DNA of 64,000 bases from Streptomonospora nanhaiensis. GTDB lineage: Bacteria > Actinomycetota > Actinomycetes > Streptosporangiales > Streptosporangiaceae. The DNA lies in NCBI RefSeq assembly GCF_026642255.1, contig NZ_CP113264.1:5270001-5334000 (forward strand), written 5' to 3'. Positions within the stretch are counted from its first letter, which is position 1, and each line of letters starts with the position of its first letter. Made by a program: the position numbers and the translations under genes. Below the pieces are notes generated by a model that was given only the letters and a program-made list of their open reading frames with translations, did no database searches and was not told where the DNA came from. Of the stretch, positions 44,433 to 49,674 are shown one piece after another.

Positions 44433-45122
44433 ATGGCACCCCCCGCCGACCGCTTCACCCGCGCACTCCTCGCCTGCGGCGCCGCCGCCCCCCTGTTCGT
44501 CCCGGTGCTCCTCGCCGAGGGGGCGTACCGCCCGGACTACGAGCCGCTCCACCGGTTCGGCAGCGAACTCGCCCTCGGGGAGAGGGGCTGGATACAGACG
44601 GCCAACTTCATCGCCACCGGCCTCCTCCTGCTGACCTTCTCCGTCGGCGTGCGCAGGGCGGCGCCCACCGGCCGGAGCTCGTTCGCGCTGCCGGCCCTGA
44701 CCGCCCTGGCCGGGGCGTGCCTGGTCGTCGCCGGCGTGTTCCCGACCGACCCCGTGGGGGTCGGGACGGCGGGCGCGACCACCCCGGCCGGGACGGTCCA
44801 CGCGGTCAACGTGCTGCCCTTCCACGCCGCCCTCACCGCGGCGCCCCTGGCGATGGCGTGGCGCCTGGCCGCAGAGCCGGGACGGCGGGCGTGGGTGGCG
44901 TACTGCTGCGCCGCGGGCGCCCTCGTCCCGCCGCTCTTCGCGGCCTTCATGGCTTCCGCCGAGCACGGCTTCCACGGCCTGGGACAGCGGGTCGTCCTGA
45001 CGGTCGGACTGACCTGGTTCGCGGCCGCGGCATGGCTGCTCCTGCGCTCGACCGCCCGGAAGGACCCGGCCCCGGACGCGGGAGGTGGAAAAGGGGTGGA
45101 CGGGGGTCGGACTGCGTGCTAA
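44433..45122 (+). CDS. DUF998 family membrane protein
   Basis: A 229-residue multi-span membrane protein from ATG 44433, with AAGGAGA upstream. Features: an RFGSELALGERGWIQTANF segment equivalent to that in the paralogue at 9806, GACLVVAGVFPTDPVG, and HAVNVLPFHAALTAAPLAMA. About six hydrophobic helices. Control by the adjacent TetR is strongly suggested by the shared operator. Function of DUF998 is unknown. Confidence 0.8.
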   Translation: MAPPADRFTRALLACGAAAPLFVPVLLAEGAYRPDYEPLHRFGSELALGERGWIQTANFIATGLLLLTFSVGVRRAAPTGRSSFALPALTALAGACLVVAGVFPTDPVGVGTAGATTPAGTVHAVNVLPFHAALTAAPLAMAWRLAAEPGRRAWVAYCCAAGALVPPLFAAFMASAEHGFHGLGQRVVLTVGLTWFAAAAWLLLRSTARKDPAPDAGGGKGVDGGRTAC

Positions 45123-45128
45123 GTTCAT

Positions 45129-45155
45129 CTCAGTCAGAGAAAAACTCAGGTTGAG
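45129..45155 (+). promoter_or_regulatory. Tandem palindromes upstream of the NrtR-like gene
   Basis: Two 11-bp palindromes, CTC-AGTCA-GAG (45129-45139) and CTCA-GGT-TGAG (45145-45155), stand 5 bp apart, 18 bp before the GTG start. This is an AT-rich spot in GC-rich DNA. They are the natural candidate for autoregulation by the NrtR-like protein. Confidence 0.55.
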
Positions 45156-45173
45156 AATAACGAGGACCCGCAC

Positions 45174-46010
45174 GTGACCGAGGACAGGACGCCCCAGCAC
45201 GACGAGCCGGAGAGCAGGTTCCTCTCCGGCTACGACCCCCACGCCTTCGCCCCCGCCGCGGTCACCGTCGACGTCGTCGCCCTCACGATCCGTCCGGAGG
45301 CCGGGACCGGGGAGACCGGGGCCCGGCGGACGGGGACCCCCCACGTACTGCTCACACGGCGCGCCGCCCACCCGCAGCGCGGCCGGTGGGCGCTGCCCGG
45401 CGGGTTCGTCCGCGCGGAGGACGGGCCGGACGGCCCCGCCGACCCCGACCTGCCCGACGCCGCCCTGCGCGTGCTGTCGGAGAAGACCCGGCTCCCCACC
45501 GAGCTGCACCTGGAGCAGCTGGGCACCTACGGGGCGCGGGGGCGCGACCCCCGCATGCGCGTGTTCTCGGTCGCCCACATGCTCCTGGCCCCCGACCTGC
45601 CCGACCCCCACAGCGGCAGGGACACCGAGGAGGCCGCCTGGGTCCCGTGGAGCGAGCTCGGGCACGGCGAGGGCTCCCGGGCCGGCCGCGACCTCGCGTT
45701 CGACCACGGGCGGATCCTCGCCGACGCGGTCGAACGCGCCCGCTCCAAGCTGGAGTACACCGCCCTGGCCACCGCGTTCCTGCCGTCCGCCTTCACCATC
45801 ACGGCACTGCGGGAGGTGTACCAGGCGGTGTGGGGGCGCACCCTGCACGCCGCCAACTTCCACCGCAAGATCCTCGCCACCCCCGGGTTCGTGGAGGACA
45901 CCGGGGAACTCGCCGAGCACGGCGGCTCCGGAGGCGGGCGCCGTGCCCGCCTGTACCGGGCCGGCGGCGCCGCGCTCCTGCACCCGCCCCTGCTGAGGAG
46001 CACCCAGTGA
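45174..46010 (+). CDS. NrtR-like regulator (Nudix domain plus winged helix)
   Basis: A 278-residue protein from GTG 45174. The N-terminal Nudix-like domain has VTVDVVALTIRP, HPQRGRWALPGGFVRAED and GTYGARGRDPRMRVFSVAHM, the NrtR pattern. The Nudix box is decayed: the REXXEE stretch reads RVLSEK, so hydrolysis is unlikely, as in NrtR regulators that sense ADP-ribose-like ligands. The C-terminal winged helix is typical (KLEYTALATAFLPSAFTITA, LREVYQAVWGRTLHAANFHR). It heads a four-gene block and probably controls it through the palindromes before it. Classic NrtR governs NAD synthesis; no NAD gene is adjacent here. Confidence 0.85.
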   Translation: MTEDRTPQHDEPESRFLSGYDPHAFAPAAVTVDVVALTIRPEAGTGETGARRTGTPHVLLTRRAAHPQRGRWALPGGFVRAEDGPDGPADPDLPDAALRVLSEKTRLPTELHLEQLGTYGARGRDPRMRVFSVAHMLLAPDLPDPHSGRDTEEAAWVPWSELGHGEGSRAGRDLAFDHGRILADAVERARSKLEYTALATAFLPSAFTITALREVYQAVWGRTLHAANFHRKILATPGFVEDTGELAEHGGSGGGRRARLYRAGGAALLHPPLLRSTQ

Positions 46011-46104
46011 CCGGGGCGGTCCGACCGCGCCGGGACCCGCCCCGGCGCCGCCCCACCGTCCCCGCTCCGGGGGCCGCGCGCCACGTACGGGAAGGGAGGG
46101 ACCG

Positions 46105-47226
46105 ATGAGCACGGAACAGCACGACACCGCGGCGTTCGACACGGCCCTGCGCACGGTCTCCATGGCCGAGGACCCCGCCGCGCTGTTCGGCCCCGTGCCG
46201 GTCGGCGGCGGAGCCGTCCCCCCGGCCGCCACCGCCGAGTACCGCCGCCTGGCCCGCCTGGTCCACCCCGACCCGGCGCCCGGGAGCCGTCGCGCGGAGG
46301 CCTCGGAGGCCTTCACCCGGCTCACACGGCTGTGGGCCCTGTACCGGGAGATGGCCGCCGGGGACCTGCGCTTCGACGACCTCACCCTCGCCACCCGGAC
46401 GCGCGCCTACCGCGTCGCGGCGGGACGCCTGGCCCGGGGCGACGTCGCCGACCTGCACCCGGTCCGCTACCGCGACGGGGAGTGGCACGACGCCGTGCTC
46501 AAGCTCCCCCGGTCCCCCCGCGACAACGACCTGATGGAGGCCGAGGCGACCGCCCTGCGCCGCATGCGCGAGAAGGGCCACGAGCACTACCGGGCGTTCG
46601 TCCCCGAGCTGGTGGACTCGTTCAAGCACCGCGACTCCGCGACCGGGGTGGAGCGGCGCGCGAACGTGCTGGGGCGGCTGCACGGCTTCCACACCCTCGC
46701 CGACGTGCGCCGGGCCCACCCCGACGGGGTCGACCCCCGCGACGCGGCGTGGATGTGGCGCCGCCTGCTGGTGGCCGTCGGCAACGCGGCGCGGGCAGGG
46801 GTCGTGCACGGCGCGGTCGTGCCGGAGCACGTGCTGGTCCACCCCGCCGAGCACGGGCTGGTGCTGGTCGACTGGTGCTACTCGGTGACCTCGCACGCCT
46901 CGCGCACCGCACCGCACGTCCCGGCCGTGGTGCCGGGCCGCGAGGACTTCTACCCGCCCGAGGTGGCCGCGCGACGCCCGGCCCTGGCGCAGACCGACAT
47001 CCACATGGCCACCCGGTGCGTCGAGTTCGTCACCGGGGGGCGCCTGCCCCGGGAACTGCGCTCCTTCGCGCGCGGATGCACCCTGCCGGCGCCCGAGCGG
47101 CGGCCCCGCGACGGGTTCGCCCTGCTCTGCGAACTCGACGACGTGCTGGAGCGCGTCTTCGGCCCGCGCCGGTTCCGCCCGTTCCACATGCCGGAACCCT
47201 CCCCACCCACCGCCCCCGCCCGCTAG
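46105..47226 (+). CDS. J-domain protein fused to a degenerate kinase-like domain
   Basis: A 373-residue protein. Residues about 40-85 look like a J-domain helix pair with the diagnostic HPD at 54-56 (YRRLARLVHPDPAPGSRR). From about 115 a protein-kinase-like fold follows: AVLKLPRSPRDNDLMEAEAT gives a beta-3 lysine (K133) and helix-C acids. VVHGAVVPEHVLVHP sits where the catalytic HRD..N loop should be, with Asp replaced by Ala and Asn by His. LVLVDWCYS is in the DFG position and keeps the Asp (D256). It is probably a pseudokinase or scaffold that can recruit an Hsp70. It lies 95 bp after the NrtR gene. Confidence 0.65.
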   Translation: MSTEQHDTAAFDTALRTVSMAEDPAALFGPVPVGGGAVPPAATAEYRRLARLVHPDPAPGSRRAEASEAFTRLTRLWALYREMAAGDLRFDDLTLATRTRAYRVAAGRLARGDVADLHPVRYRDGEWHDAVLKLPRSPRDNDLMEAEATALRRMREKGHEHYRAFVPELVDSFKHRDSATGVERRANVLGRLHGFHTLADVRRAHPDGVDPRDAAWMWRRLLVAVGNAARAGVVHGAVVPEHVLVHPAEHGLVLVDWCYSVTSHASRTAPHVPAVVPGREDFYPPEVAARRPALAQTDIHMATRCVEFVTGGRLPRELRSFARGCTLPAPERRPRDGFALLCELDDVLERVFGPRRFRPFHMPEPSPPTAPAR

Positions 47227-47284
47227 GGCACCGACCCCGCGGCCCCTCCCGGCCGCCCCCGTCCCCTCAGAAGGAGACCCACCC

Positions 47285-48280
47285 ATGGGAAACAGCAACT
47301 GGTCCACCGACGCCTACCACGCGCGCCAGGCGTACAACTCCTCCGTCGGGTCCAGCAGCTTCGGCTACACCGACGACGTGCTCGCCTCCACCCCCCGCAG
47401 CAAGTGGAAGACCCACCCGAGCCTGGACCCCCGGGACGTCGGCGTCCGGGAGAGCCGCGACTCCGACGAGCACCCCAACTCGCTCGCCATCTCCGTGCTG
47501 TTCGACGTCACCGGCTCCATGGGCACCGTGCCCCGCGTCCTCCAGACCAAGCTGCCCGACCTGTTCGGACTCCTGCTGCGCAAGGGGTACGTGGAGGACC
47601 CGCAGATCCTGTTCGGCGGGATCGGCGACGCCACCTGCGACCGGGCGCCGCTCCAGGTCGGCCAGTTCGAGTCGGGGAACGAGCTGGAGGACGACCTCGG
47701 CAACATCCTGCTGGAGGGCGGAGGGGGCGGCCAGGCCACCGAGTCCTACGAGCTGGCCATGTACTTCATGGCGCGGCACACCGCGATGGACTGCCTGGAG
47801 AAGCGCGGACGGCGCGGCTACCTGTTCGTCATCGGCGACGAGATGGCCTACGGGTCGGTCAAGGCGCGCGAGGTGCGCGAGGTGATCGGCGACGACGTCA
47901 CCGAGAACATCCCGTTCCCGCAGATCCTCGCCGAGCTGCGGCGCAGCTTCGAGGTCTTCTTCATCATGCCCACGGGCAGCCACTACTACGGCGACCCGAA
48001 GGTCAGGGGGTTCTGGGACACCCACCTGGGCCAGAACGTCATCTACCTGGACGACCTCGAAGCGGTGTCGGAGACCATCGCGGTCACCGTCGGGCTGGCC
48101 GAGGAGGCCATCGACCTGGAGGAGGGGCTCTCGGACCTGGCCGAGGCCGGGTCGGACGCCGGAGAGGCGGTCGGCAAGGCACTGCGCCCCCTGTCCTCCG
48201 CGCGCGGCTCGGTGGTGGTCGCACCGGCCCCGGGCGGCCTCCCCGCGGGGGCCGACGAGGGCGGGGTGGGCCGGCTGTGA
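47285..48280 (+). CDS. von Willebrand factor A domain protein
   Basis: A 331-residue protein from ATG 47285 behind AAGGAG. The vWA domain begins near 66: SLAISVLFDVTGSMGTVPRV carries a MIDAS metal site of the form DxTxS (D74, T76, S78). Later metal ligands are likely in GGGGGQATESYELAMYFM and YLFVIGDEMAYG. The N-terminal 60 residues are polar and the C-terminal 40 Ala/Gly-rich. vWA proteins usually assemble partners or AAA ATPases; here its partners are probably the flanking J-domain and synthetase-like proteins. Its stop overlaps the next start as GTGA. Confidence 0.82.
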   Translation: MGNSNWSTDAYHARQAYNSSVGSSSFGYTDDVLASTPRSKWKTHPSLDPRDVGVRESRDSDEHPNSLAISVLFDVTGSMGTVPRVLQTKLPDLFGLLLRKGYVEDPQILFGGIGDATCDRAPLQVGQFESGNELEDDLGNILLEGGGGGQATESYELAMYFMARHTAMDCLEKRGRRGYLFVIGDEMAYGSVKAREVREVIGDDVTENIPFPQILAELRRSFEVFFIMPTGSHYYGDPKVRGFWDTHLGQNVIYLDDLEAVSETIAVTVGLAEEAIDLEEGLSDLAEAGSDAGEAVGKALRPLSSARGSVVVAPAPGGLPAGADEGGVGRL

Positions 48281-49674
48281 CGGGCACTCCTCCGCGGTGG
48301 TCCGACGGGAACGCGGTCGTCGTCGACCTGGGGTTCGGCGACGCGGGCAAGGGCGTGACGGTGGACCTGCTGTGCGCGCGGCGGCGCTTCGGCGCCGTCG
48401 TGCGCGCCAACGGGGGCGCGCAGGCGGCGCACAACGTCGTCGCCCCCGACGGCCGGCACCACACGTTCGCGCAGTTCGGGGCGGGAACCCTCGCCCCGGG
48501 CGGGCCGGTCCCCACCCACCTGTCACGGCTCGTGGTCGTGGACCCCTTCGCGCTGGCCGCCGAGGCCCGGCACCTCGCGGAGCTCGGGGTCCCCGATCCG
48601 TTCTCGCTGGTCACGGTCGACCGCCGGGCGCTGGTCAGCACGCCCTGGCACCAGGAGGCGAACCGGGTGCGGGAGCGGGCGCGCGGCGCCGGCCGCCACG
48701 GCTCCTGCGGGATGGGCGTGGGCGAGGCCATGGCCTACGCCCTGGCCCGCCCGGAGGACGCGCCGACCGCCGGCGACTGCGACCGCCCCGAGCGGCTGCG
48801 CCGCAAGCTGCGCCGCCTGGCCGACCACCTCGACGCGGTGCGGAGGGAGGCCGCCCGCTCGGGCGGTGCTCCGCGGGAGGCCGGTCCGGTGCCGGACGTC
48901 GAGGAGTGCGTGTCCGCGTACCTGGCGTTCGCGCGGCGGGTGCGGCTGGTGGACGAGGAGTACCTGCCCGGCCTGCTGGCCCGCTCCCCCGTGGTGTTCG
49001 AGGGGGCCCAGGGCGTGCTCCTCGACGAGTGGCACGGGTTCCACCCCTACACCACCTGGTCGACCACGACCACCGCGAACCCGCTCGCCCTGCTGGCCGA
49101 GGCCGGGCGGCCGGGTGACGCCCGCCGGATCGGCGTGGTGCGCACCTTCACCACCCGGCACGGCGCCGGACCGCTGGTGGCGGAGGACCCCGCGCTGGGC
49201 GAGCGGCTCGTGGAGCGGCACAACGGCACACACCCCTGGCAGGGGCCGTTCCGGGTGGGCCACCTCGACCTCGTGGCGCACCGGTACGCGCTCGCGGCCA
49301 CCGGCGGGGTGGACTCGCTGGTGGTCACGCACGCCGACGCCCCCGCCCGTGCCGGCGGCCGGCTGCGCTGGTGCACCGCCTACACGGGCCCGGACGGGGC
49401 CCCACTGGAGATCGCCCCCGGCGACGCGCCCGCGCCTGACCACCCCGCCCTCCGGGAGCCCGGCGGGCGCCGCGGGGGTCCCGCGGACGCCACCCGCGCC
49501 GCGGAGCGCCTGGCACGGCAGGAGCGGCTCACCCGGGCCCTGGAGTCCGCCGACCCGGTCCTCTCCGCCGCCCCCGCCGCACCGGAGGCGCTCGCCGAGG
49601 CGCTGGGCCCTCCGCTGGAGGCGGTGTTCTCCGGCCCCACCCGGGCCGACGCCCTCGTCCCGTCGGGCGTCTGA
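48277..49674 (+). CDS. Divergent adenylosuccinate synthetase-like enzyme
   Basis: A 465-residue paralogue of PurA from GTG 48277. Recognisable parts: VVVDLGFGDAGKGVTVDLL (catalytic loop, D22, canonical GDEGKGK), RANGGAQAAHNVVAPDG (catalytic-type H52, canonical NNAGHT), VVFEGAQGVLLDEWHGFHPY (242-257, well kept) and VRTFTTRHGAGPLVAED. It diverges at the guanine-specificity motif (T/N-KxD reads THAD, 351-354) and at the Asp/IMP-loop TTGRPRR, here THPWQGPFRV. It is about 35 residues longer than usual PurA. This suggests changed nucleotide or acceptor use rather than housekeeping AMP synthesis. Translation is coupled to the vWA gene. Confidence 0.75.
   Translation: MTGTPPRWSDGNAVVVDLGFGDAGKGVTVDLLCARRRFGAVVRANGGAQAAHNVVAPDGRHHTFAQFGAGTLAPGGPVPTHLSRLVVVDPFALAAEARHLAELGVPDPFSLVTVDRRALVSTPWHQEANRVRERARGAGRHGSCGMGVGEAMAYALARPEDAPTAGDCDRPERLRRKLRRLADHLDAVRREAARSGGAPREAGPVPDVEECVSAYLAFARRVRLVDEEYLPGLLARSPVVFEGAQGVLLDEWHGFHPYTTWSTTTTANPLALLAEAGRPGDARRIGVVRTFTTRHGAGPLVAEDPALGERLVERHNGTHPWQGPFRVGHLDLVAHRYALAATGGVDSLVVTHADAPARAGGRLRWCTAYTGPDGAPLEIAPGDAPAPDHPALREPGGRRGGPADATRAAERLARQERLTRALESADPVLSAAPAAPEALAEALGPPLEAVFSGPTRADALVPSGV

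What the first reader, a model, noticed from the sequence alone, without database searches (positions are those of the whole stretch)
45129..49674. NrtR-like / J-domain-pseudokinase / vWA / PurA-like four-gene block
Four genes in one direction combine an ADP-ribose-type sensor regulator, an Hsp70-recruiting J-domain fused to a degenerate kinase fold, a MIDAS-containing vWA protein and a PurA relative with altered specificity motifs. The last two overlap (GTGA) and the block starts behind tandem palindromes. Sensor plus chaperone or scaffold plus nucleotide ligase suggests a nucleotide-linked stress or anti-phage system. The parts are read from sequence; the joint function is inference.
Basis: partly seen in the sequence, partly recalled or inferred. 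Interest (0 to 1): 0.8.

Follow-up and report, generated by a model that had tools for sequence, protein, structure and literature searches.

The report
Conserved PurA-like, vWA, J-domain gene system
Four neighbouring genes in this actinobacterium are the local copy of a gene set, apparently undescribed, that recurs in many bacteria and large phages and is built round an unusual purine-ligase-like enzyme that almost always travels with a metal-binding partner protein; what it does is not yet known.

Summary
PurA-like and vWA genes are a near-obligate pair: the PurA-like gene is present in 77 of 80 vWA-bearing bacterial contigs and 126 of 136 viral contigs, and vWA in 75 of 79 viral loci found through the PurA-like gene. 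A J-domain pseudokinase (57/80, 73/136) and an NrtR-like Nudix regulator (39/80, 5/136) are frequent additions. The PurA-like proteins form one clade apart from PurA and a PurZ; they keep the catalytic Asp and His but lack the aspartate-binding TTGR loop. The vWA proteins begin Met-Gly in 245 of 247 readable cases. A tandem CTC-N5-GAG operator is conserved in 21 of 21 congeneric regions. I infer a locally repressed, GTP-dependent purine ligase with changed amine or nucleotide specificity, acting with or on its vWA partner. A NAD/nucleotide-stress role is plausible but weakly supported; defence is unproven, since here the block sits at a fixed place beside ruvC and phages carry it too. Most daring reading: the enzyme purinylates the vWA N-terminal glycine. 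Ten paper searches found no description.

The parts
45097..45125 (+). promoter-like elements: TGGACG (45097-45102), 17 bases, then extended -10 TGCTAAGTT (45117-45125)
   Evidence: TGnTAnGTT just upstream of the tandem operator in 18 of 21 regions; the generic sigma-70 scan found nothing
45129..45155 (.). tandem operator CTC-N5-GAG, N5, CTC-N5-GAG, presumed site of the NrtR-like repressor
   Evidence: 21 of 21 regions; one site in this genome, but the backward control pattern also has one; stricter form in 20 of 37 genus genomes with 0 control matches
45174..46010 (+). NrtR-like regulator: Nudix domain with degenerate Nudix box plus NrtR winged helix
   Evidence: Pfam; relatives; canonical Nudix box in 3 of 69 relatives' frames, cut-off frames included
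46105..47226 (+). J-domain (HPD at residues 54-56) fused to a kinase-fold domain lacking the HRD aspartate
   Evidence: phrog_3043 2.3e-50
47285..48280 (+). vWA protein with DVTGSM MIDAS and conserved Met-Gly start
   Evidence: phrog_2971 6.2e-68
48277..49674 (+). PurA-like enzyme of a clade separate from PurA and PurZ; GTGA overlap with the vWA gene
   Evidence: phrog_1211 2.4e-69

Best explanation
The block is one self-regulated enzymatic module. SHOWN by comparison: the PurA-like enzyme and the vWA protein are a near-obligate gene pair; the J-domain pseudokinase and the NrtR-like regulator are frequent extra parts; the enzyme clade keeps the PurA catalytic core but not the aspartate loop. 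INFERRED: (1) the NrtR-like protein sits on the tandem operator just downstream of the -10 box and blocks transcription until it binds an ADP-ribose-type nucleotide made under stress or infection; (2) the PurA-like enzyme uses GTP to phosphorylate the 6-oxygen of a hypoxanthine-type nucleotide and displaces it with an amine, amine or nucleotide (or both) differing from those of PurA; (3) the vWA protein, probably co-translated through the GTGA overlap, is the enzyme's partner: it presents the acceptor through its metal site or is itself the acceptor; (4) the J-domain recruits Hsp70 to load, release or recycle the complex, the pseudokinase serving as a docking fold. Purpose (inferred): making or repairing a purine nucleotide or nucleotide conjugate when NAD or purine pools are attacked, useful to cells and to large phages alike.
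For: PurA-like gene in 77/80 bacterial contigs, 126/136 viral contigs, 5/5 plasmids and 4/4 phage isolates that carry vWA; conversely vWA in 75/79, the 4 without it having the PurA-like gene at a contig edge. In a Gemmataceae genome the two genes are present but apart. All 14 genomes tested, and the window's, also hold a canonical PurA. Catalytic Asp 228/228, P-loop Lys 228/228, His 229/229; TTGRxR loop replaced by N300 (229/230), Q306 (227/230), R310 (224/230). One clade. Conserved operator. At least 11 phage/bacterium label changes on a quick tree of 167 rows. NAMPT within 10 kb of vWA in 5 of 15 viral contigs that carry it, 1.34 expected.
Against: No biochemical evidence; substrate and product are guesses. 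Q306 and R310 could still bind aspartate in another way: PurZ uses aspartate (PMC12884076 passages) and lacks TTGR in the alignment. Ligand of the NrtR-like protein unknown. The J-pseudokinase is absent from 23 of 80 bacterial and 63 of 136 viral loci; of 13 such viral records searched whole, 12 had none and one only a 26.8-bit piece, while 7 positive controls all matched. 33 of 49 large viral records show no NAMPT match. Coupling counts rest on the best-scoring 80 relatives per scan, with near-identical phage contigs counted apart.
Confidence: 0.45

Rival explanations
1. Backup AMP maker: ordinary adenylosuccinate chemistry (IMP + Asp + GTP) with relaxed control, used by cells and phages to turn IMP or dIMP back to adenine nucleotides when adenine is deaminated or NAD is destroyed; vWA and J-protein only help fold or assemble the enzyme.
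For: Catalytic Asp, Lys and His kept in all readable rows; Asp of the guanine loop in 208 of 229; NAMPT and NadM-type genes near some viral copies; NrtR-type regulator.
Against: TTGR loop gone and E. coli N38 position Gln in 224 of 229; every one of 14 genomes tested already has PurA; a simple backup enzyme would not need an almost obligate vWA partner.
Confidence: 0.22
2. Anti-phage or anti-stress effector system: on induction the PurA-like enzyme makes a harmful or signalling purine, or drains GTP/IMP, to stop phage growth; large phages captured it for use against competitors or as counter-defence.
For: Patchy presence: 140 of 297 genomes of the order, 2 of 396 in the phylum sample; decayed copy in G008; plasmid and phage carriage; a dedicated regulator.
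Against: Fixed place beside ruvC in 11 of 12 genomes; no PADLOC system model; no toxin-like domain in the four proteins; same gene set in phages.
Confidence: 0.18
3. Peptide-handling chaperone unit: vWA and J-domain are the working parts and the PurA-like protein is only a GTP switch that times their action.
For: vWA with MIDAS 249-250 of 250 and HPD 126 of 129 are highly conserved; vWA proteins are proposed as peptide-binding chaperones in related contexts (PMC9503650 section 3.8).
Against: The enzyme keeps the full catalytic core, not only the nucleotide site; the J-protein is often absent while the enzyme is not.
Confidence: 0.1

Closest known systems
Adenylosuccinate synthetase PurA (PF00709)
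   Same: Fold by homology; GD(E/A)GKG loop with catalytic Asp; catalytic His; EGAQG; TKLD-like loop with Asp in 208 of 229.
   Different: TTGRxR loop gone; TRVG becomes TRHG (His 230/230); N38 position Gln in 224 of 229; separate clade; near-obligate vWA neighbour; carriers hold PurA as well.
PurZ/PurZ0 of 2-aminoadenine phages
   Same: Phage-borne PurA paralogue; PHROG 1211, the family's best match, is named '2-aminooxy adenylosuccinate synthetase'.
   Different: PurZ has Ser for the catalytic Asp (PMC12884076); here Asp 228/228; the one PurZ in the tree falls outside the family, on a long branch.
NrtR, NAD-metabolism repressor
   Same: Nudix sensor + NrtR winged helix; degenerate Nudix box.
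   Different: The block's operator pattern occurs at one place in the genome, the block itself; two further NrtR_WHD proteins exist elsewhere in the genome.
ARG-centred Nudix-TF/vWA systems (Iyer et al. 2022, PMC9503650)
   Same: Nudix-HTH repressor and a vWA chaperone gene in one neighbourhood (section 3.8 read).
   Different: No ADP-ribosylglycohydrolase in the four genes or the five flanking proteins scanned; PurA-like enzyme and J-pseudokinase instead; the paper's main text has no 'PurA', 'AdSS' or 'succinyl'.

Membership tests
PurA | Catalytic Asp13 and His41 equivalents | tested here: met
   228/228 and 229/229. Asp13 as essential: PMC12884076 passage; His41 role recalled.
PurA | Aspartate-binding loop TTGRxR | tested here: not met
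   Absent from the 16 family rows aligned with PurA; N/Q/R pattern in 224-229 of 230. Role of the loop recalled.
PurA | NCBIfam purA cut-off; place inside the PurA clade | tested here: not met
   107 vs 395.55 bits; separate clade, 39 rows, SH-aLRT 97.
PurZ | Ser in place of the catalytic Asp; NCBIfam PurZ cut-off | tested here: not met
   Asp kept; 42.5 vs 300 bits.
NrtR | Nudix domain + NrtR winged helix | tested here: met
NrtR | Control of NAD metabolism genes | tested here: inconclusive
   The block's operator pattern has no second site in the genome; sites of another sequence are not excluded.
NrtR | Binding of ADP-ribose or NAD | not testable with these tools
   Needs a binding assay.
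J-domain proteins | HPD motif between helices II and III | tested here: met
   HPD 54-56 between helices 40-53 and 60-84; HPD 126-127 of 129; DnaJ in 28 of 48 relatives. Window protein itself under the Pfam cut-off; fold of this part not searched alone.
Active protein kinases | HRD and DFG aspartates | tested here: not met
   HRD Asp 15/146, absent in the window protein (HGA); DFG Asp 46/146, present in the window protein (VDW).
vWA/MIDAS proteins | vWA fold with DxSxS-type MIDAS | tested here: met
   DxTxS, Asp 250/250; Z 15.5.
ARG/Nudix-TF/vWA systems | ADP-ribosylglycohydrolase gene | tested here: not met
   None among nine proteins scanned with Pfam.
Known defence systems (PADLOC 2023) | Block proteins match system models | tested here: not met
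   Only partial kinase-fold hits, best 5.3e-06 to MkoA.

The most novel reading that the evidence does not exclude
Protein purinylation: the PurA-like enzyme joins C6 of an IMP-type nucleotide to the free N-terminal glycine of its vWA partner, which takes the place of aspartate. The product would be a protein whose N-terminus carries an adenine nucleotide through N6: a new post-translational modification, perhaps a carrier of purine or ADP-ribose signals, with Hsp70 (through the J-domain) recycling it. Basis: Met-Gly start in 245 of 247 readable vWA proteins with no such conservation in the first profile columns of the two other proteins; the lost TTGR loop; the near-obligate pairing. Against: the three enzymes that lack Q306 still have Met-Gly partners, two vWA proteins without Met-Gly (L069, L184) have ordinary enzymes, and the vWA N-terminus is predicted to be ordered (residues 1-10 mean pLDDT 86), so a structural reason for Gly is possible.
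Probability: 0.12. Interest if true: 0.97.

Novelty: categorically new. Interest (0 to 1): 0.82.

Why it matters
If right, a third clade of the adenylosuccinate synthetase family, distinct from PurA and PurZ, works in a fixed partnership in bacteria of at least seven phyla by record title and in many large phages, including about 190 mycobacteriophage records whose genes are annotated only as 'kinase', 'hypothetical protein' and 'PurA-like' or '2-aminooxy adenylosuccinate synthetase'. Recognising one system would correct those names. It also makes an unknown purine chemistry directly testable in I3-like phages on the laboratory strain M. smegmatis mc2 155. 'Categorically new' is about distance from systems I found described; each part belongs to a known superfamily and the function is unproven.

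Tried and rejected
Canonical PurA or PurZ membership rejected. Mobile or defence-island idea rejected for this genus on synteny; not tested for other lineages. Regulon idea: no second operator site in the genome; the backward control pattern also gave one match there, so the loose pattern alone proves nothing, while the stricter form gave 20 of 37 genomes against 0 control matches. Clustering of neighbour genes in 205 loci, with crude gene calling, found no fifth constant gene; the largest family was in 12 loci, and most were viral (one ABC transporter family, 8 loci, 6 not viral). NAD link kept only as weak: P 0.007 without correction for relatedness. Generic promoter/terminator scan and repeat finder returned nothing. 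Paper searches listed no paper that describes the set by title or abstract start; only open-licence PMC text is searched. Seen: PMC9503650 passages and section 3.8; PMC12884076 passages and one section; PMC7824862 passages; all others search listings only.

Limits: relatives were the best 80 of 411, of 280, of 133 and of 436. Searches scored only the first 7 or 5 candidates per genome, so tallies are lower bounds. For one search I left out 20 duplicate viral loci and L050; near-identical contigs remain. IMG/VR contigs may include host or prophage pieces. PurA_L410 dropped from the tree (no frame found). One PurZ only; PurZ, L185 and L251 have long branches. Operator regions: 20 of the 26 other genomes with a hit. 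G034's operator lies on another contig than its vWA gene, not resolved. One search used 49 viral records of 100 kb or more that I picked. Roles of E. coli PurA residues other than Asp13 are recalled.
Full report
WHAT IS THERE. The window is G000:C1:5270001-5334000 of a 7.27 Mb genome. Four genes run in one direction from 45174 to 49674: a Nudix protein with an NrtR winged helix; a J-domain protein with a kinase-like half; a vWA protein that no Pfam model recognises; and a PurA relative. Genes three and four overlap by GTGA. PHROGs has families for the last three: phrog_3043 'kinase' 2.3e-50, phrog_2971 unknown 6.2e-68, phrog_1211 '2-aminooxy adenylosuccinate synthetase' 2.4e-69.

THE SET IS CONSERVED. 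In Mycobacterium phages I3 and Cane17 the order is kinase, vWA, a small gene, PurA-like. Plasmids of Tsukamurella and Rhodococcus opacus have kinase-vWA-PurA-like-Nudix; that of Agrobacterium vitis has a divergent Nudix and then kinase-vWA-PurA-like; that of Acetobacter has kinase-vWA-PurA-like, with a divergent Nudix found by profile. vWA relatives occur in 208 phage records, 189 of them Mycobacterium phages, and in 21 plasmid records. In the window's order 140 of 297 genomes have one; in a wide sample of the phylum 2 of 396, the window's own included. A scan of bacterial genomes gave 411 relatives, the best 80 kept; record titles name Pseudomonadota, Bacillota, Cyanobacteria/Melainabacteria, Acidobacteriota, Planctomycetota, Chlorobiota and Actinomycetota members. 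Viral scans gave 280 and 133 relatives, 80 kept from each.

COUPLING IN NUMBERS. Profiles of the four families were run on open frames of the loci. Of the three bacterial contigs without the PurA-like gene, two (L074, L118) end just after vWA; the third (Gemmataceae, L131) has a family member with the WQG..R motif elsewhere in the genome. Starting from the PurA-like gene instead, vWA is present in 75 of 79 viral loci; in the other four the PurA-like gene lies at the contig's edge. The core is therefore the vWA/PurA-like pair. Of 13 viral records whose locus lacked the J-kinase, 12 had none anywhere and one had only a 26.8-bit piece, while 7 positive controls all matched, so a J-less form is real.

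THE ENZYME. All 14 tested bacterial genomes with the block, and the window's genome, also hold a canonical PurA. A quick tree of 54 rows puts the 39 family rows on one side of a branch (SH-aLRT 97), apart from 14 PurA and one PurZ. In 230 distinct family sequences the catalytic Asp is kept in 228 of 228 readable, the His in 229 of 229. The E. coli N38 position is Gln in 224 of 229. The loop TTGRxR is replaced by a pattern with N300 (229/230), Q306 (227/230) and R310 (224/230, otherwise Lys 5 and Ser 1). PurZ differs again, with Ser for the catalytic Asp (PMC12884076 passages and section 24). That paper's tree of 767 sequences has 251 in the PurA group and 151 in the PurZ group; by subtraction 365 lie outside both, and this clade may be among them (inference).

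THE PARTNERS. The vWA model is confident (pLDDT 92.6) and matches integrin beta-I domains over residues 63-312. Its MIDAS Asp is invariant (250/250). Its second residue is Gly in 239 of 239 aligned rows; start codons are ATG 234 and TTG 3 of 237, and in 166 of these no other start lies upstream before a stop. Of the 11 rows not aligned there, six read Met-Gly by eye, three are cut off or broken before that point, and two do not fit (L069, L184). The first profile columns of the other two proteins show no such conservation. The J-kinase model (pLDDT 92.4) has a PknB-like fold in its kinase half; the HRD Asp is present in only 15 of 146 and the DFG Asp in 46 of 146 relatives (the window protein has the second, not the first), while HPD is kept in 126-127 of 129.

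REGULATION. A tandem CTC-N5-GAG operator lies just downstream of an extended -10 element in the window and in all 20 congeneric regions fetched (21 of 21; the -10 pattern in 18 of 21). In this genome the loose pattern occurs only here, but its backward control also occurs once. The stricter form occurs once each in 20 of 37 genus genomes, with no control match. One of these, G026, shows no vWA match, but its contig ends about 1.9 kb after the operator; one, G034, has the site on another contig than its vWA gene; one, G008, keeps it beside a decayed block. Local autorepression is the simple reading; the ligand is inferred from the NrtR family only.

PLACE AND SPREAD. In 11 of 12 genomes fetched the block lies by ruvC and in 10 of 12 by the PNPOx gene, so in this genus it is inherited in place; the one without ruvC is from another genus. 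Between lineages it has moved: at least 11 phage/bacterium label changes on a quick tree of 167 PurA-like sequences. Near some viral copies lie NAMPT, NadM-type, RNA ligase and TROVE genes. NAMPT is over its cut-off in 15 of 49 large viral records and within 10 kb of vWA in 5, with 1.34 expected: suggestive, not strong.

READING. Best: a repressible GTP-dependent purine ligase whose amine donor or nucleotide differs from PurA's and which works with or on the vWA protein, with Hsp70 help where the J-protein is present. Most daring: the vWA N-terminal glycine is the amine donor. Neither has direct biochemical support. The families, the coupling, the operator and the motif changes are tool results; the chemistry and the purpose are inference.

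Noticed in passing
L120, L128, L129: Some gut Clostridia carry two tandem vWA genes before the PurA-like gene, as if the partner had duplicated.
   Followed up: no
L036:199-2484: J-kinase and vWA matches share one open frame in this genome: a fusion or a frame error.
   Followed up: no
L042 (G008:C71): A decayed copy of the block: only pieces of vWA and of the PurA-like gene remain, the operator is intact.
   Followed up: partly
L131 and L412 (Gemmataceae genome): vWA and a PurA-like clade member in one genome but not neighbours.
   Followed up: partly
L277:8679-10361; L164:9691-11094; L175:10279-11337: TROVE (Ro-like), DUF2828/DUF7788 and RNA ligase genes lie near viral copies of the pair; an RNA-repair setting is possible.
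   Followed up: partly
Bixzunavirus records, e.g. L002:4835-8683: Deposited names ('kinase', '2-aminooxy adenylosuccinate synthetase', 'hypothetical protein') are probably misleading: most relatives lack kinase catalytic residues, and the enzyme is not PurZ.
   Followed up: partly
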